Source: Kutzneria viridogrisea
GTDB lineage: Bacteria; Actinomycetota; Actinomycetes; Mycobacteriales; Pseudonocardiaceae
Length of the DNA stretch: 64,000 nucleotides
NCBI GenBank assembly: GCA_014138725.1
Contig: JACJID010000001.1
Coordinates: 310,001-374,000, forward strand
Direction of reading: 5' to 3'
Part shown: one piece after another, positions 4,258 through 24,197 of the stretch
Layout of the letters: each line of letters opens with the position of its first letter
How positions within the stretch are numbered: the stretch's first letter is position 1
The notes under the pieces: generated by a model
The model's database searches: none
What the model was told of the DNA's origin: nothing
What the model saw: the letters and a program-made list of their open reading frames with translations, nothing else
Program-made: the position numbers and the translations under genes

Positions 4258-5909
4258 CCCGGCACGACCCGCAGCAGCACCTGGAGGTCCAGTGCTCGCG
4301 GGTGCTCCCGCCAGCCGGGGCCGAGCAGGGCGTCGAGGTGGCCAAGTCGTTGGTACAGCGTGTTGACGTGCACCCCGAGGGCCTGCGCCGCGGCGGCGGC
4401 CCGCCCACCACTGTCCAGGTAGGCGCGGACGGTGTCCAGCAGCGGCACACCACGCCGCTCCTGCTCGGCGAGGACCGGGCCGAGCGCGCGCTCGAACTCG
4501 GCGTGCAACTGCTCGCGCCCGGCATGGGTCAGCAACACCCGGTAGATGCCCAACTGGGCGGCGGTGCACGACTCACCCTCGCGGCCCAGGGCGAGCAGCG
4601 CGTCCAGGGTCTGCTCGGCCTCCTGGTAGCAGCGGGCGAGCTCGCCGGGGTTGGCGGCCGGTCCGGCGGCGCCCACGGTGTGCCGACCCGGCGGCCACTG
4701 GGCGAGCAGGTCCTCCGCCGACTCGCCGGGCGCCACCAGCACGAGCCGGTCCCCGCTGCGGGCGAGCACACCGCCGGTCGGCACACGGGGCGGCTCGGTG
4801 CCGGGCGTCGCGAGGAGCACGCAGTGCGGGCGGGACGGGTCCAGGCCCAGGGCGCGCATCCGCTGGCCGTCCGCGGCGGGGCGGGTGAGCAGGTCGATCA
4901 CCTGGGTGTCGCGGGTGAGCCGACTCGCCTCGGCCGCGGCCCGCTCGCGCAGCACCGCGAGCGCCAGCACCGGGGCGGCCCGCTCCAGCAACAGCCGGTC
5001 CCCGGCGCACACCTGCTCGCCGACCAGCACGAGCGAGCCGAGCACCAGCCGGTCCGCCCGCACGGTGCACACCACCTCACCCTCGGCCTGCTCCTGGCCA
5101 GGCAGGAACCGCACCTGCCCCGCCACCGAGGCGGCCACCTCCGCGACCAGGTCGTCCACCCCGCCGCCGCGCAGCACCACCTCGGTCAGCTGCCGGTCCC
5201 AGCCCAGGGTCCGGGCCAGTTCCGCGTTGGCCTCGTTGAGCCGGTGCAGGGTCACCGCGTTGTCGATCGCCACGGCCGCGTGCGCGGCCAGCGCGGTGAG
5301 CAGGGCGACCTCCTCCTCGGTGAAGTGCCGCTCCTGCCGCTTGCAGGCGAACAGCGCGCCGAGCACCCGCCCGCGCACCGTCAGCGGCACGCCCAGCAGG
5401 GCGCGGATGTTCTCCGCTGCGGCCACCTCGTCGGCCACCGGGTGGTGCTCGAAGGACACGGCCGCGGCGTACTCACAGGTCCAGATCGGTCGTGCCCCGG
5501 TGACCACGGCGCCCGCGATGCCCGCCGCACGCGGCAGGCGCAGCCCGAGCAGCTGCGGGGTGAGCGCCCCGCTGGCCACCTCCATCACGAACTGCTCGCC
5601 CTGCACCAGCCCGATGTAGGCCAGGTCCACGGCCAGCAGCCGACGGGCCTGCTCGGTGACCTCGCGCAGCAGCTCACCCGGCTGGTGCAGCCCGGCGAGG
5701 CGGCCCGCGATCTCGTTGAGCGCCGACAGCTCGGCCGCCCGCTGGCGGCGCTGCGCCAACAGGGCCCTGACCTGGAGGGCCGCCCGCGCCTCGCGCTCCA
5801 CCTGCTCGGTGGGCAGGCCCCGCGCGAGCAGCCGGTCCCGGTGGGCGGCCAGCGCCTGGGCCGGTTCCTCGGCGAGCAGCAACTCCAACCACATGGGAGG
5901 AGTATCCAC
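4254..5909 (-). CDS. GAF-domain PucR/CdaR-type transcriptional regulator
   Basis: 551 aa. An N-terminal helical stretch is followed by a GAF domain (about residues 65-210), a middle region, and a C-terminal PucR-type helix-turn-helix (LDTVRAYLDSGG through LGVHVNTLYQRL). The family usually controls neighbouring catabolic genes in response to small molecules. The gene is divergent from the GlcD-type oxidase at 5977, its likely target. The frame opens with GTG at 5909; an ATG five codons in (5894) is an alternative start. Confidence 0.85.
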   Translation of the reverse strand: MDTPPMWLELLLAEEPAQALAAHRDRLLARGLPTEQVEREARAALQVRALLAQRRQRAAELSALNEIAGRLAGLHQPGELLREVTEQARRLLAVDLAYIGLVQGEQFVMEVASGALTPQLLGLRLPRAAGIAGAVVTGARPIWTCEYAAAVSFEHHPVADEVAAAENIRALLGVPLTVRGRVLGALFACKRQERHFTEEEVALLTALAAHAAVAIDNAVTLHRLNEANAELARTLGWDRQLTEVVLRGGGVDDLVAEVAASVAGQVRFLPGQEQAEGEVVCTVRADRLVLGSLVLVGEQVCAGDRLLLERAAPVLALAVLRERAAAEASRLTRDTQVIDLLTRPAADGQRMRALGLDPSRPHCVLLATPGTEPPRVPTGGVLARSGDRLVLVAPGESAEDLLAQWPPGRHTVGAAGPAANPGELARCYQEAEQTLDALLALGREGESCTAAQLGIYRVLLTHAGREQLHAEFERALGPVLAEQERRGVPLLDTVRAYLDSGGRAAAAAQALGVHVNTLYQRLGHLDALLGPGWREHPRALDLQVLLRVVPG

Positions 5910-5964
5910 TCAACCCGGCGAACAGTGGGCGGTTCGTCCATCGGCAGACCCCGGTGAGCGGGCC

Positions 5965-5979
5965 TAGCCTGATCTTGTG
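5965..5979 (+). promoter_or_regulatory. -10 box of probable leaderless glcD-type transcript
   Basis: TAGCCT (5965-5970) lies exactly 6 nt upstream of the GTG start at 5977, and no Shine-Dalgarno sequence precedes that start. This geometry predicts transcription from the start codon itself. Confidence 0.5.
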
Positions 5980-7359
5980 CTGATCGAGGACCTGCTGGCA
6001 GGGCTGCCCGAGGACCGCGTGGTCCGCGACCCGGACGTGCTGCGCGGCTACGCCCACGACGAGGCCGAGTGGGCGCCCTGGGAGCTGCCCGCGGTGCTCG
6101 TGCGCCCGCACAGCGCCGAGGAGGCGCGGACCGTGGTCCGGACCTGCCTGCGCCACCGGGTCCCGGTCGTCACCAGGGGAGCGGGCACGGGGTTGTCCGG
6201 CGGGGCCAACGCGCTGGCGGGCTGCGTGGTGCTCAGCACCGACCGGCTCACCGCCATCCGCGAGATCAACACCGTGGAGCGGCTCGCCGTGGTGCAGCCC
6301 GGGGTGGTCAACGAGGACCTGCGCGCGGTCTGCGCCGAGCACGGGCTGTGGTACCCGCCCGATCCGGCCAGCTCCCCGTGGTCGACCATCGGCGGCAACG
6401 TGGCCACCAACGCGGGCGGCGTGTGCTGCGTCAAGTACGGGGTGACCCGCGACTACGTGCTGGGCATGCAGGTGGTGACCGGCACGGGTGAGCTGGTGCG
6501 GCTGGGGCGGCGCACCGCGAAGGGCGTGGCGGGCTACGACCTGGCGGGCCTGCTGGTCGGCTCGGAGGGCACGCTGGGCGTGATCACCGAGGTGACGGTC
6601 CGGCTGCGCGCCCAGCGCGCGCCCGAACGCACCGTGGCCGGCTACTTCGGCTCCACCGGCGCGGCGGGCGAGGCTGCGGCGGCGATCGCGGCGGCCGGGG
6701 TCGTGCCCTCCGCGCTGGAACTGGTGGACCGGCACTGCCTGGCCGCGGTGGACGCCTGGAAGAACATGGGCCTGAGCGCCGACGCCGAGGTCGTGCTGCT
6801 CGGCCGCACCGACGCGCCGGGCGCGCTGGGTGAGCACGAGGCCGCGACCATGCTGGACTGCTTCGAGCGGGCCGGGGCGAGCTGGGCCGTGCAGTCCAGC
6901 GACCAGGCCGAGGCCGACGCCCTGTTCGCGGCCCGGCGGCTGGCCTACCCGGCGCTGGAGCGGCTCGGCCCGGTGCTGACCGAGGACGTGTGCGTGCCCA
7001 CCGGGGCCGTGGCGCGGATGCTGGGCCGGATCGAGGCCGCGGCCCGGCGGCACGACACGCTGATCGCCAACATCGCGCACATCGGGGACGGCAACCTGCA
7101 CCCGCTGCTGATCACCCCGCCCGGGGACGAGGCGGCGCGCGCCAGGGCGCAGGCCGCCTTCGAGCAGATCATCGCCGACGCGCTGGACCTGGGCGGCACG
7201 GTCACCGGGGAGCACGGGGTCGGCCTGCTCAAGCGCTCCGGGCTGGACCGCGAACTCGGACCGGTGGTGCTGGACATGCACCGCGCGGTCAAGCAGGCAC
7301 TCGACCCGCACGGGATCCTCAACCCCGGCAAGGTCTTCGACGAGAGGAACAGCACGTGA
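5977..7359 (+). CDS. FAD-linked 2-hydroxyacid oxidase, GlcD family
   Basis: 460 aa. An N-terminal VAO-type FAD-binding domain contains RGAGTGLSGGANAL (pyrophosphate loop) and PWSTIGGNVATNAGG. The C-terminal FAD-oxidase domain has IAHIGDGNLHPLL and GTVTGEHGVGLLK, with the conserved His residues. It oxidises a 2-hydroxyacid such as glycolate or D-lactate; the exact substrate cannot be set. No GlcE or GlcF subunit is adjacent. The carboxylesterase start overlaps its stop by 4 nt, so the two are co-translated. Confidence 0.88.
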   Translation: MLIEDLLAGLPEDRVVRDPDVLRGYAHDEAEWAPWELPAVLVRPHSAEEARTVVRTCLRHRVPVVTRGAGTGLSGGANALAGCVVLSTDRLTAIREINTVERLAVVQPGVVNEDLRAVCAEHGLWYPPDPASSPWSTIGGNVATNAGGVCCVKYGVTRDYVLGMQVVTGTGELVRLGRRTAKGVAGYDLAGLLVGSEGTLGVITEVTVRLRAQRAPERTVAGYFGSTGAAGEAAAAIAAAGVVPSALELVDRHCLAAVDAWKNMGLSADAEVVLLGRTDAPGALGEHEAATMLDCFERAGASWAVQSSDQAEADALFAARRLAYPALERLGPVLTEDVCVPTGAVARMLGRIEAAARRHDTLIANIAHIGDGNLHPLLITPPGDEAARARAQAAFEQIIADALDLGGTVTGEHGVGLLKRSGLDRELGPVVLDMHRAVKQALDPHGILNPGKVFDERNST

Positions 7360-21487: not shown

Positions 21488-21496
21488 TCGCACGCT

Positions 21497-21525
21497 CTCG
21501 GGGGACGGTACCGCCGTCCCCCGAG
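21497..21525. terminator. Bidirectional hairpin terminator
   Basis: Perfect 12-bp stem CTCGGGGGACGG / CCGTCCCCCGAG with a 5-nt loop, 10 bp after the M4 protease stop and 5 bp before the convergent caspase-chaperonin stop. Confidence 0.85.
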
Positions 21526-21530
21526 GGCGC

Positions 21531-23822
21531 TCAGCCGAGCATGATGAAGCGTGCGGCCAGTTCCGCGGCACTGGTCACGGCCACCCGCAGCACCCCGGCG
21601 GAGTCGATCACCCCGCTGTCCGGGCCGCCCGCGAAGGACTCGGTGTGCACGTCGAACCCGCCGGTCGGTGGTGCGGTGGTGAGCCGCTCGGCCTCGATCC
21701 CGCCGTTGACGGCGTTCTGCAGCAGGGGCGCGCGCAGGGCCGCGGCCACCGCCGCCCAGCCCGCGGTCTCGTCGGGGTCGGCCAGGCCCGTGCCGGACAG
21801 CGCCTCGCCCGCCAGGAACAGGGCGACCCCACCGCCCGCGACCACGCCCTCGGCGATGGCCGTGCGCATGGCCAGCACGGCGCGTTCGGTCCGGGACTTG
21901 CGCTCGGCCAGTTCGGACTGGGTCAGCGCCCCCACGGTGATCGCGGTGACGCCCCCTGCCAGCTGGTCCAGCCGCTGCTGCAACTGCGGGCGCTGCTCCG
22001 GCGGGGCCTGTGCGAGCTGCCAGTTGACCAGGCTGAGCCGTTCCGCCAGCCGGGGGTTCTGCCCCGACTCGACCACGATGGTGGTCTCGTCCCTGGTGAC
22101 GACCACGGTCCGCGCGGTGCCCAGGTGGTCCAGCTCCACCTGCGCCAGGTCGGCGGCCGAGGCCACGACCACCGCGCCGGTCACGGCGGCGATGTCCGCC
22201 AGCCACTCCACCTGGTCGGCGCCGCCCGGGGCCCGCACGGCCACCGACTTGAAGGTGCCCCGGACCTTGTTGACCACCAGGGTCGACTGGGTCTCGCCCA
22301 CCACCTCGGTGGCGATCACCAGCAGGGGCTTGCCGCTCTGCATCACCTTCTCCAACACCGGCACCAGCTCGGCGACGCGGTCCAGCACGTCGGCCACCAG
22401 CAGCACCCGCGCGTCTTCCAGCACGGCCTCGCGGCGCTGGTCGTCGGTGATGAAGTAGGCCGAGGTGAACCCGCTGCCGAAGCGGATGCCGCCGACCTCG
22501 CGGGTGGCCAGCGCGATGTCGTTGCTCTCCTCCACGACGATCGCCCCGCTGCGGCCCACCCGGGACAGGGCCTGTGCGATCAACGTGCCGATCTGGCCGT
22601 CGGTGGCCGAGCTGGTGGCCAGCCGCTCCACGTGGTGCATGGTCGCCAGCGGGGTGGCCATCGAGGCCAGCAGCGCGCAGGCCCGCGTCGCGGCCTGCGC
22701 CACGCCCCGCCGCAGCCGGATCGGGTGCGCCCCGGCCCGCATCGCCTCCAGCAGGCGGGTGACCATGGCCTGGGCGAGGACCACGGCGGTGGCCGCCCCG
22801 TCCCCGGCGCCGACCCGCACCTGCTGCACGAGGTCGCGCACGTAGCCGGCGCCCAGCTCGTAGCGCGGGTCCTCGGCGCGCAGCGTGCTGGTGATCAGCG
22901 CGGTGTCGCTGAGCTCCACGTAGCGGCCGTGTTCGTCGATGACCGCCACGCGGCGGCCCAGCGGGCCCAGGGTGCGGCCCACCGGTTCGGCCGCGGCGCG
23001 GATGCCCCTGGCCACGGCGATCTGCGCGGCGCTGTAGGTGGCCGCCCGCTTCAGGTCCGGACCGGCCGAGTTGTGCGGCTCGCCGACCACCCCGGCCCTG
23101 GCCACCCGCAGCCCGGGCCCCGCGTCGTAGGCGAAGTAGCGCGGGGACTGGTCGGGCCGCCGCACGCGCACGGCGTCGTGCACGTACTTGAACAGCTCCT
23201 CGCTGTCGATCCAGCCGTCCCCGTCGAGGTCGGCGTCCCCGGTGGACAGGCCCTGTACCAGCACGTCGGTGAAGATCGAGGACTGTGGGGACTCCACCGC
23301 GAGGGTGTCCTCCTCGTAGGCGTACTCGTAGGCGTTGGAGGCGGTGAGCACCACGTAACCGTGGTTCTCGTGGTTGTCCAGCACCTCGTCGCGGGCGGCC
23401 TTGAAGCCCTCCACGAAGGCCCCGCTGAAGCAACAGTCGAGCAGTAGCAGCTTGCCCGCGGCCAGGCAGTCCTCCAGCTGCTCGTTGACGAAGGAGCGGG
23501 AGATCGCCGAGCCAGCGGGCCGGTCCTGCACGGTGTTGGTGGTGGCGAAGTACAACCGCCGCTGCGGGGTGGTCACCCCGTGGCAGGAGAAGTACAGCAG
23601 CACCATGTCCTCGCGGGACCGGTTGGTGGTCAACGCCTCGATGCCCCGGCGCACCTCCAGGTCGGTGCCGTCGCGCAGTACCTCCACGGTGTCGAACGCC
23701 CCGACCGCGGGGTCCAGCAGCAGGGCCGCCAGCCGGGTGACGTCCTGCTCGGGCCCGCGCAGGCGGGACAGCCGGGTGTCCTCGTACTCGCCGGTGGCGA
23801 CCAGCAGCGCGTGTCGGCCCAT
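21531..23822 (-). CDS. Caspase / EF-hand / GroEL-like chaperonin fusion
   Basis: 763 aa. Residues 1-185 form a caspase-like (C14) protease with His81 in LLYFSCHG and Cys131 in LLLDCCFSG. Residues 198-209 are a canonical calcium EF-hand loop (DLDGDGWIDSEE). Residues about 258-763 align with GroEL over equatorial, intermediate and apical domains: VGRTLGPLGRRV, GDGAATAVVLAQAMV, AGAHPIRLRRGV, GGIRFGSGFTSAYFITD, TLVVNKVRGTFKSVAV, EGVVAGGGVALF. ATPase residues Asp52 and Asp87 of E. coli GroEL are kept (SDT, GDG), but the Asp398 position is Arg647 (TERAV) and the GGM tail is missing. ATP hydrolysis is therefore probably lost. It starts 3 nt after the EACC1-like gene. A conflict or regulated-death role is inferred. 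Confidence 0.88.
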   Translation of the reverse strand: MGRHALLVATGEYEDTRLSRLRGPEQDVTRLAALLLDPAVGAFDTVEVLRDGTDLEVRRGIEALTTNRSREDMVLLYFSCHGVTTPQRRLYFATTNTVQDRPAGSAISRSFVNEQLEDCLAAGKLLLLDCCFSGAFVEGFKAARDEVLDNHENHGYVVLTASNAYEYAYEEDTLAVESPQSSIFTDVLVQGLSTGDADLDGDGWIDSEELFKYVHDAVRVRRPDQSPRYFAYDAGPGLRVARAGVVGEPHNSAGPDLKRAATYSAAQIAVARGIRAAAEPVGRTLGPLGRRVAVIDEHGRYVELSDTALITSTLRAEDPRYELGAGYVRDLVQQVRVGAGDGAATAVVLAQAMVTRLLEAMRAGAHPIRLRRGVAQAATRACALLASMATPLATMHHVERLATSSATDGQIGTLIAQALSRVGRSGAIVVEESNDIALATREVGGIRFGSGFTSAYFITDDQRREAVLEDARVLLVADVLDRVAELVPVLEKVMQSGKPLLVIATEVVGETQSTLVVNKVRGTFKSVAVRAPGGADQVEWLADIAAVTGAVVVASAADLAQVELDHLGTARTVVVTRDETTIVVESGQNPRLAERLSLVNWQLAQAPPEQRPQLQQRLDQLAGGVTAITVGALTQSELAERKSRTERAVLAMRTAIAEGVVAGGGVALFLAGEALSGTGLADPDETAGWAAVAAALRAPLLQNAVNGGIEAERLTTAPPTGGFDVHTESFAGGPDSGVIDSAGVLRVAVTSAAELAARFIMLG

Positions 23823-23825
23823 CGC

Positions 23826-24197
23826 TCACTCCCGCCCGGCGGAGTGCTCGCGCAGCCAGGTCTCGACCACCTGGCGCTCGGTGCGCGCGCCGGCGCCGTC
23901 GATCCGGAGCCGGTCCTGGCCGGAGCGCAGTTCGATGCTGCGGGCGCTGCCCCGCTTGACGAAGGCCAGCAACACCGAGACCAGGGCCCTGATCGCGCTG
24001 GGCGTGGTGAGCCCGGCGACCACCAGCGCCCCGATCGTGGTGGCCGTGTCAGACTTGGCCCCGGGTTCGGCGGGCGTGGAGACGGGCCGGGCGTCGACCC
24101 GGGCCCCGCCGTGCAGCTCCCGCAGCAGCGAACTCGTTGCCGCGGCAAGGTTCCCGTCCGCTTCGAGGACGATCTCGATCTGGGTCACGGACTGCAC
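23826..24197 (-). CDS. EACC1-like small partner of the caspase-chaperonin
   Basis: 123 aa with a beta-rich N-terminus (QIEIVLEADGNLAAATSSLL), a hydrophobic central helix (ATTIGALVVAGLTTPSAIRA, VSVLLAFVK) and a C-terminal pair of strands plus helix (SIELRSGQDRLRIDG, ERQVVETWLREH). This order matches what I recall of EACC1 (effector-associated constant component 1), the small protein accompanying caspase or trypsin effectors in predicted actinobacterial conflict systems. The match is by pattern, not a search. GTG at 24197 is the first start; another GTG lies three codons in. It is separated from the caspase start by 3 nt. Confidence 0.65.
   Translation of the reverse strand: MQSVTQIEIVLEADGNLAAATSSLLRELHGGARVDARPVSTPAEPGAKSDTATTIGALVVAGLTTPSAIRALVSVLLAFVKRGSARSIELRSGQDRLRIDGAGARTERQVVETWLREHSAGRE

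What the first reader, a model, noticed from the sequence alone, without database searches (positions are those of the whole stretch)
21531..24197. Caspase fused to an EF-hand and a near-complete GroEL, with an EACC1-like partner
One 763-aa polypeptide joins a caspase (His81, Cys131), a canonical calcium loop (198-209) and a chaperonin covering all three GroEL domains. It is translated 3 nt after a small EACC1-like gene, the kind of constant partner described for predicted actinobacterial conflict systems. A chaperonin ring could collect unfolded or foreign proteins and cluster caspase domains, with calcium as a second input. I do not recall any experimental description of such a protein; the mechanism is inference.
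Basis: partly seen in the sequence, partly recalled or inferred. Interest (0 to 1): 0.93.

Follow-up and report, generated by a model that had tools for sequence, protein, structure and literature searches.

The report
Bacterial caspase fused to disabled GroEL
Some actinobacteria carry a two-gene suspected immune device in which a cell-death-type protease is fused to a captured, apparently disabled copy of the protein-folding machine GroEL, perhaps as bait for viruses that hijack the real one.

Summary
Window 21531-23822 (-) encodes a 763-aa protein: an EACC1-type caspase (His81/Cys131 intact) plus a GroEL covering all three domains, 3 nt behind a divergent EACC1 gene. The 'EF-hand' is no extra module: it is a loop of the caspase, also present in caspases without GroEL.

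It is a new variant of the predicted two-gene EACC1-caspase conflict system (Kaur et al. 2020), with a chaperonin as the variable module. Fused caspases form one clade (100/99), found in Pseudonocardiaceae and Micromonosporaceae. The GroEL is probably not a working chaperonin: Asp398 is lost in 27 of 36 sequences (Arg here), Thr89 in 35 of 36. On the founding branch the ATPase/ring domain changed about 18-fold more than the client-binding (apical) domain; later the apical domain became the fastest-changing part.

Best explanation (inferred, 0.42): an ATPase-dead pseudo-chaperonin serves as bait or sensor for proteins that engage host GroEL, such as phage proteins, and switches on the caspase. 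Against it: no defence-island context, one member lacks the apical domain, the variability may be relaxed constraint, and dN/dS controls are only partly distinct. Activity, oligomer and antiviral role are untested.

The parts
23826..24197 (-). EACC1-like gene (GTG start, 123 aa), first gene of the pair
   Evidence: No direct profile hit. BLASTP 2e-7 to P0008, which lies at an own-genome place that passes Pfam EACC1 (26.7 bits, cut-off 23.6). hhalign of its family against three own-genome EACC1s plus the Saccharopolyspora one: 98.5%, E 1.7e-15.
21531..23822 (-). caspase-GroEL fusion gene (ATG start, 763 aa, stop codon included in coordinates)
23136..23822 (-). EACC1-type caspase domain, residues 1-229; His81 and Cys131
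   Evidence: Pfam C14 residues 3-229, E 6.9e-15; NF047832 164.4 bits; dyad conserved; model pLDDT 86, Foldseek MALT1
23196..23231 (-). acidic DxDxDG loop, residues 198-209, part of the caspase domain, not a separate EF-hand
   Evidence: like loop in 30 of 32 caspases with and without GroEL; Pfam EF-hand_5 below cut-off
23037..23135 (-). variable linker, residues 230-262; a basic residue within six residues before the conserved Tyr in 30 of the 34 homologues (of 36) where the Tyr motif was found
   Evidence: possible self-cleavage site, weak
22656..23036 (-). pseudo-GroEL equatorial domain, first half, residues 263-389 (E. coli Asp52 and Asp87 kept; Thr89 and Thr90 changed to Ala)
   Evidence: domain limits recalled from E. 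coli GroEL
21927..22655 (-). intermediate and apical domains (residues 390-632), the most GroEL-like part
   Evidence: Identity to best housekeeping GroEL: apical 0.53, intermediate 0.43, equatorial 0.37; apical piece 182 bits to a GroEL model
21534..21926 (-). second intermediate segment, with Arg in place of E. coli Asp398, and second half of the equatorial domain, residues 633-763

Best explanation
The locus is an EACC1-caspase two-gene conflict system whose variable module is a captured actinobacterial GroEL turned into a pseudo-chaperonin. Shown by comparison here: one clade of fused caspases; an intact caspase dyad and fold; an EACC1 gene directly upstream; a chaperonin fold; loss of GroEL's ATPase residues in most members; an equatorial domain remodelled before the family radiated while apical and intermediate domains stayed GroEL-like; later, an apical domain that changes faster than the rest. 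Inferred: the apical face is a bait or sensor that meets proteins which normally engage host GroEL (phage capsid proteins, phage co-chaperonins of the gp31 kind, or misfolded protein). Because it cannot cycle through ATP hydrolysis it holds them, and the change of shape or crowding, perhaps at the membrane through EACC1, activates the caspase, which cleaves itself and/or cell proteins and stops growth. The changed equatorial domain would keep it out of the two housekeeping GroEL rings of the same cell.
For: EACC1-type caspase above the curated cut-off. EACC1 hit upstream, gap -4 to +10 nt, in 39 of 40 fused rows examined besides the window (some genomes are there twice). Fused caspases one clade, 100/99, 15 of 32 rows. 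Of 36: Asp398 is R 23, A 1, G 1, H 1, N 1, D 9; Thr89 kept in 1; Asp87 and Asp495 in 36, Asp52 in 35, so nucleotide may still bind. D398A GroEL has about 2% ATPase and slowed release of unfolded protein (PMC3813556, passages read). Founding-branch lengths on one constrained topology: equatorial 1.46, intermediate 0.06, apical 0.08. Later apical/equatorial ratio of summed branch lengths: 5.76/1.51 = 3.8 in 9 Saccharothrix-type fusions and 2.29/1.09 = 2.1 in 5 Plantactinospora-type ones, against 1.34/1.17 and 1.43/1.30 (both 1.1) in 17 and 11 housekeeping GroELs. Median dN/dS: caspase 0.26, equatorial 0.32, intermediate 0.61, apical 0.88 (19 sequences); 0.14, 0.28, 0.34, 0.50 (10 Micromonosporaceae sequences). 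Each of 10 tested carrier genomes keeps at least two housekeeping GroELs, and so does the window's. Seven flank contexts for one conserved pair (32 loci). T4 gp31 takes over GroES's role to fold phage proteins (PMC6318259, abstract in listing). Kaur et al. propose inactive enzyme copies as decoys in such systems (PMC7159879, passages).
Against: No known defence gene at the window: nine flanking proteins are metabolic, regulatory or a peptidase (Pfam only). At other loci PADLOC rang for 1 of 10 flanking proteins, an ABC transporter ATPase. One member (G895, L128) has lost the apical domain (6% of positions filled) and Saccharothrix-type members lack about a quarter of it, so the bait is dispensable or eroding in some. 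dN/dS near 0.9 also fits relaxed constraint, and the dN/dS contrast is not unique: apical/equatorial is 2.8 and 1.8 in the fusions but ranges from 0.5 to 2.5 in six small housekeeping sets (absolute apical values 0.04-0.44). Asp398 is kept in 9 of 36. EACC1's membrane helix is borderline. No phage or interaction data exist. The founding-branch contrast could reflect domain replacement; one origin of the apical plus intermediate parts is not rejected (p-AU 0.42) but is not shown.
Confidence: 0.42

Rival explanations
1. Effector model: the pseudo-GroEL is the weapon. EACC1 senses invasion at the membrane, the caspase cuts the linker, and the released ATPase-dead chaperonin poisons GroEL-dependent folding (dominant negative) or traps phage proteins.
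For: This is the general reading of Kaur et al. for the system: sensing by EACC1, deployment of the C-terminal module by autoproteolysis (PMC7159879 section 33). ATPase residues lost. A basic residue sits shortly before the chaperonin start in 30 of 34.
Against: The equatorial domain needed for co-assembly with GroEL is strongly diverged (0.28-0.37 identity to the best housekeeping GroEL) and ring-contact positions are changed. A trap would be expected to keep its apical groove, which is the fastest-changing part and is lost in one member. The linker basic residue is missing in 4 of 34.
Confidence: 0.25
2. Stress or development regulator: the module reports proteotoxic stress (loss of free chaperone) and the caspase triggers programmed death or differentiation; viruses are not the point.
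For: Non-defence flanks; shared flanks, so mainly vertical inheritance, among 16 Saccharothrix-type and 11 Plantactinospora-type loci. The genera are mycelial actinomycetes (recalled).
Against: Patchy elsewhere: 23 of 390 family genomes found fused, with only the 30 best places checked; fast change of the apical domain; five loci with unshared flanks.
Confidence: 0.17
3. One reading: an active chaperonin ring gathers unfolded or foreign proteins and clusters the caspases, with calcium as a second signal.
For: All three GroEL domains are present and fold like GroEL; a calcium-type loop is conserved.
Against: ATPase residues lost; ring-interface positions changed; equatorial domain remodelled. 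From recall: GroEL N-termini point into the cavity, where seven caspases would hardly fit. The loop is general to these caspases.
Confidence: 0.12

Closest known systems
EACC1-caspase two-gene conflict system (System 4 of Kaur et al., eLife 2020, PMC7159879)
   Same: Small EACC1 gene followed directly by a gene with an N-terminal EACC1-type caspase and a variable C-terminal module; actinobacteria.
   Different: The module is a chaperonin. The section read lists EF-Tu, Clp, JAB, STAND, OMP-decarboxylase-like and SAD domains among up to 50; the terms GroEL, Cpn60, chaperonin, HSP60 and TCP1 do not occur in the text held. Figures and source data were not seen. EACC1 is divergent here.
Group I chaperonin GroEL/Cpn60
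   Same: Three-domain fold; Asp52, Asp87, Asp495 mostly or always kept; apical domain up to 0.69 identical to housekeeping GroEL in the most GroEL-like members.
   Different: Fused behind a caspase; Asp398 and Thr89 mostly lost; below the GroEL equivalog cut-off.
Bacterial caspase homologues and the paracaspase MALT1
   Same: His-Cys dyad and fold.
   Different: Belongs to the EACC1-associated subfamily; no solved structure found by sequence (best E 0.42).
Integrated decoys of plant NLRs and decoy enzymes of eukaryotic immunity
   Same: The proposed logic: a captured, disabled copy of a host target serves as bait (plant part recalled; eukaryotic decoys as cited by Kaur et al.).
   Different: No homology; not shown experimentally here.

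Membership tests
EACC1-caspase system (Kaur et al. System 4) | 5' gene encoding EACC1 | tested here: met
   P0002 has no direct Pfam hit. Met through intermediates: BLASTP 2e-7 to P0008 from an own-genome place above the Pfam EACC1 cut-off; hhalign 98.5%. Of five other EACC1s scanned (three from fused loci on the list and one more fused, one from a plain caspase locus), three hit Pfam EACC1 just below its cut-off (18.6, 18.9, 22.8 against 23.6 bits) and two did not hit
EACC1-caspase system (Kaur et al. System 4) | 3' gene with N-terminal caspase of the EACC1-associated type | tested here: met
   NF047832 164.4 bits, cut-off 140
EACC1-caspase system (Kaur et al. System 4) | variable C-terminal module on the caspase protein | tested here: met
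   Chaperonin here; the next caspases L096, L098-L103, L117-L120 show no GroEL in the stretch held
EACC1-caspase system (Kaur et al. System 4) | transmembrane helix in EACC1 | tested here: inconclusive
   Best 19-residue hydropathy 1.71 in P0002, 1.63-2.07 in 18 relatives: borderline
EACC1-caspase system (Kaur et al. System 4) | role against invaders | not testable with these tools
   Predicted, not tested, in the passages read of the source paper
GroEL (working group I chaperonin) | three-domain chaperonin fold | tested here: met
GroEL (working group I chaperonin) | catalytic Asp398 and phosphate-binding Thr89/Thr90 | tested here: not met
   Arg, Ala, Ala in this protein; roles of Thr89/Thr90 recalled
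GroEL (working group I chaperonin) | NCBI GroEL equivalog cut-off | tested here: not met
   TIGR02348 392.8 against 582.1 bits
GroEL (working group I chaperonin) | ring assembly and client folding | not testable with these tools
   No oligomer prediction on hand; interface positions changed
EF-hand family | Pfam EF-hand cut-off | tested here: not met
   EF-hand_5 10.9 bits against 25.9; loop consensus fits by eye; a PDB calcium-binding protein matches 168-214 only at E 0.65
Caspase (C14) | fold and His-Cys dyad | tested here: met

The most novel reading that the evidence does not exclude
A bacterial immune receptor with an integrated chaperonin decoy: host GroEL was captured, its ATPase and ring engine disabled, and its client-binding face kept and then diversified as a surface that detects viruses dependent on GroEL and fires a caspase. 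It would be a prokaryotic counterpart of integrated-decoy receptors that guards protein folding.
Probability: 0.33. Interest if true: 0.87.

Novelty: new variant of a known kind. Interest (0 to 1): 0.63.

Why it matters
EACC1-caspase systems are diverse and, in the two papers of that group seen here in passages, rest on prediction. Here the captured module is a protein whose clients, lid and viral hijackers are known, so the idea that disabled copies of host machines act as bait becomes directly testable: offer GroEL clients or phage co-chaperonins and read out caspase activity. The two-step pattern (engine remodelled first, client-binding face changing fastest later) is a signature that can be sought in other modules of such systems, such as EF-Tu.

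Tried and rejected
Artefact or chance: rejected (coding signal; 35 other fusion sequences). Equatorial domain from another chaperonin lineage (phage, group II): no support; both halves score best with bacterial GroEL models and their one clear phage-family hit is a GroEL family. Repeated replacement of the apical part from housekeeping GroEL: the free tree puts apical plus intermediate parts of fusions in two places among housekeeping GroELs, but one clade is not rejected (p-AU 0.42), so not claimed. EF-hand as second input: a general caspase loop. Conserved self-cleavage site: basic residue in 30 of 34 with the motif found, of 36; weak. Empty site in the genus: no match at E 1e-100 to the flanking dioxygenase in the 6 other genomes; for the flanking peptidase the other genomes' best matches are 48-59% identical and I did not inspect those places. 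In the full-length model the caspase part is poor (block pLDDT 39-82), so the caspase was modelled apart. PADLOC gives its generic caspase model on the fusion, E 3.6e-13.

Rows dropped and limits: the trees leave out 17, 16 and 17 of the 36 fusions, close relatives chosen to save time, but also the degenerate L131, and L128 where the apical part is needed. dN/dS sets hold 19 and 10 of the 36; the method is a simple Nei-Gojobori count of my own, and high GC3 inflates absolute values. In one search only the 30 best places were fetched and checked for GroEL; weaker caspases, among them those of G483 and G485 of the window's genus, were not. The EACC1 profile was built from 19 EACC1s, 18 of them from fused loci, so only the rest are independent. 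The founding-branch lengths use a topology in which I held the fusions together beside the a-type GroELs. E. coli domain limits are recalled.
Full report
WHAT IS THERE. On the minus strand the window holds a tight gene pair: an EACC1-like gene (24197-23826, 123 aa) and, 3 nt on, a 763-aa gene (23822-21531). The long protein has a caspase (Pfam C14, residues 3-229, E 6.9e-15; NCBIfam caspase_w_EACC1 164.4 bits, cut-off 140) and a chaperonin (Cpn60_TCP1, residues 281-760, E 2.7e-38). The codon pattern is that of a real gene (GC3 0.97, GC2 0.49). AlphaFold gives a good chaperonin part, and the 50 Foldseek hits shown are all group I chaperonins. The caspase part of that model is poor; modelled apart with 32 caspases it reaches pLDDT 86 and matches MALT1, the Geobacter protein GSU0716, caspase-9 and metacaspases.

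CORRECTIONS. The calcium-type loop at 198-209 is inside the caspase domain and is shared by 30 of 32 aligned caspases, 15 of these 30 without GroEL. Pfam's EF-hand match is far under its cut-off. So 'caspase + EF-hand + GroEL' is 'caspase + GroEL'. The small partner has no profile hit by itself. It is EACC1 by intermediates: BLASTP 2e-7 to an own-genome protein whose place passes Pfam's EACC1 cut-off, and 98.5% profile-profile probability. The same genome has two further EACC1-caspase pairs, at C10:41258-42236 and C1:1885683-1886585, and two housekeeping GroELs.

WHO ELSE HAS IT. A scan of GTDB species genomes with the caspase part gave 20 loci, 16 of them caspase-GroEL: Saccharothrix, Plantactinospora and Micromonospora. 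The window's family is Pseudonocardiaceae, inferred because genomes of that group code carry loci scoring identically to named Saccharothrix records. Of 390 of its genomes, 143 have a caspase match at E 1e-50; the 30 best places were fetched and 23 genomes carry the fusion: 20 of genus code g6 (Saccharothrix; one degenerate), the window, G501 and G407. Most genomes without a match are not listed, so the share of g6 is unknown. In the window's own genus 1 of 7 genomes has a match in the fused score range; the weaker caspases of G484 and G487 lack GroEL, those of G483 and G485 were not checked. Of 354 Micromonosporaceae genomes, 17 match at 1e-75 and 13 of these 17 carry GroEL. Of 396 genomes drawn across the phylum, only the window matches at 1e-75. 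Besides the window, 39 of 40 fused rows have an EACC1 hit directly upstream, gap -4 to +10 nt (some genomes appear twice, under a record name and a G handle). The exception, G359, has Arg in place of the catalytic Cys and a shrunken GroEL: enzyme, partner and module seem to decay together.

ONE ORIGIN, MANY PLACES. Fused caspases form one clade (100/99; 15 of 32 rows), split into a Micromonosporaceae and a Pseudonocardiaceae branch. Flanks are shared among the 16 compared Saccharothrix-type loci and among a group of 11 Plantactinospora-type loci; the window, L050, L126, L129 and L130 share flanks with none (32 loci compared). The pair itself is thus the unit. Its neighbours in the window are an M4 peptidase, aldehyde dehydrogenases, a dioxygenase-type protein and similar (nine proteins). 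In G501 it lies between a histidine synthesis gene and an anthranilate synthase gene, and of 10 flanking proteins tested elsewhere only an ABC-transporter ATPase matched PADLOC. This is not a defence island, and it is a result against a simple defence reading.

THE GroEL IS PROBABLY NOT A WORKING CHAPERONIN. On a 36-sequence alignment numbered by E. coli GroEL, Asp398 is R 23, A 1, G 1, H 1, N 1 and D 9; Thr89 is kept in 1; Thr90 in 12; Asp87 and Asp495 in 36; Asp52 in 35. The 29 housekeeping GroELs all keep Asp398. Given the caspase tree, Asp398 was lost more than once (Pseudonocardiaceae; the L050/L114 branch; single H and N cases), unless regained (inference). D398A GroEL has about 2% ATPase and slow release of unfolded protein (PMC3813556, passages). 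Several ring-interface positions are also changed. ATP binding without turnover is the likely state (inference).

A TWO-STEP HISTORY. Against housekeeping GroELs the fusions' equatorial domain is 0.28-0.37 identical, while the apical domain is 0.53 here and 0.60-0.69 in L050, L126 and L129. Trees: for the equatorial domain the fusions are one clade (100/100) on a very long stem; for apical plus intermediate they sit among the housekeeping a-type GroELs, in two places, with one clade not rejected (p-AU 0.42). On one constrained topology (48 rows) the founding branch is equatorial 1.46, intermediate 0.06, apical 0.08. Afterwards the order inverts. Summed branches, apical against equatorial: 5.76 and 1.51 within 9 Saccharothrix-type fusions (ratio 3.8), 2.29 and 1.09 within 5 Plantactinospora-type ones (2.1), 1.34 and 1.17 within 17 a-type and 1.43 and 1.30 within 11 b-type housekeeping GroELs (both 1.1). 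Mean amino-acid identity in 19 Saccharothrix-type fusions: caspase 0.86, equatorial 0.76, intermediate 0.54, apical 0.47. Median dN/dS: 0.26, 0.32, 0.61, 0.88 there (171 pairs) and 0.14, 0.28, 0.34, 0.50 in 10 Micromonosporaceae sequences (45 pairs). The dN/dS control is less clean: six small housekeeping sets have apical 0.04-0.44 and equatorial 0.07-0.28, with apical/equatorial ratios from 0.5 to 2.5, against 2.8 and 1.8 in the fusions. One member, G895, has lost the apical domain. So the constant core is EACC1 + caspase + equatorial domain; the client-binding face was kept at first, then became the fastest-changing part. This fits a sensor face in an arms race; relaxed constraint fits too, and these data do not separate them.

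MECHANISM. Kaur et al. proposed that EACC1 senses at the membrane, the caspase deploys the C-terminal module by autoproteolysis, and inactive copies of host enzymes act as decoys (PMC7159879; abstract, section 33 and passages read). Phage T4 brings gp31, which takes over the role of GroES and favours folding of phage proteins (PMC6318259, abstract). I judge most likely that the pseudo-GroEL is a bait or sensor wired to the caspase (0.42), then a released effector (0.25), a stress switch (0.17), or an active ring (0.12). None of the functional steps is shown.

NOVELTY. Among the papers listed by searches for the combination (lists capped at 8 to 20, and one search had 729 matches) I saw none that describes a caspase-GroEL fusion. 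The library holds open-licence papers only, and the figures and source data of Kaur et al., who mention up to 50 module types, were not seen. Hence 'new variant of a known kind'.

Noticed in passing
window 21493-21529: An inverted repeat (16-nt arms, 94% complementary, 5-nt loop) lies between the convergent 3' ends of the M4 peptidase gene and the caspase-GroEL gene; it looks like a shared bidirectional terminator.
   Followed up: partly
L128 (G895), caspase-GroEL gene: Loss of almost the whole apical domain in an open gene: a natural caspase plus equatorial/intermediate version.
   Followed up: partly
L131/L097 (G359), at the shared Saccharothrix-type site: Degenerate member: catalytic Cys replaced by Arg, no EACC1 detected upstream, shrunken GroEL; suggests joint decay of the parts.
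   Followed up: partly
L130 (G501), about 4600-7102: The EACC1-caspase-GroEL pair sits between a histidine biosynthesis gene and an anthranilate synthase (trpE-like) gene, with small unidentified frames between.
   Followed up: partly
L063 (own genome C6:752072-752359): An EACC1 gene above the Pfam cut-off with no caspase match on that contig; its partner was not identified.
   Followed up: no
L117, L118, L120 (Micromonosporaceae) and L096, L098, L101 (Pseudonocardiaceae): Related EACC1-caspase pairs with other C-terminal parts, not identified here; they may carry further captured modules.
   Followed up: no
L156 (G684): A third housekeeping-type GroEL copy in a carrier genome, on its own branch near the a-type.
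   Followed up: no
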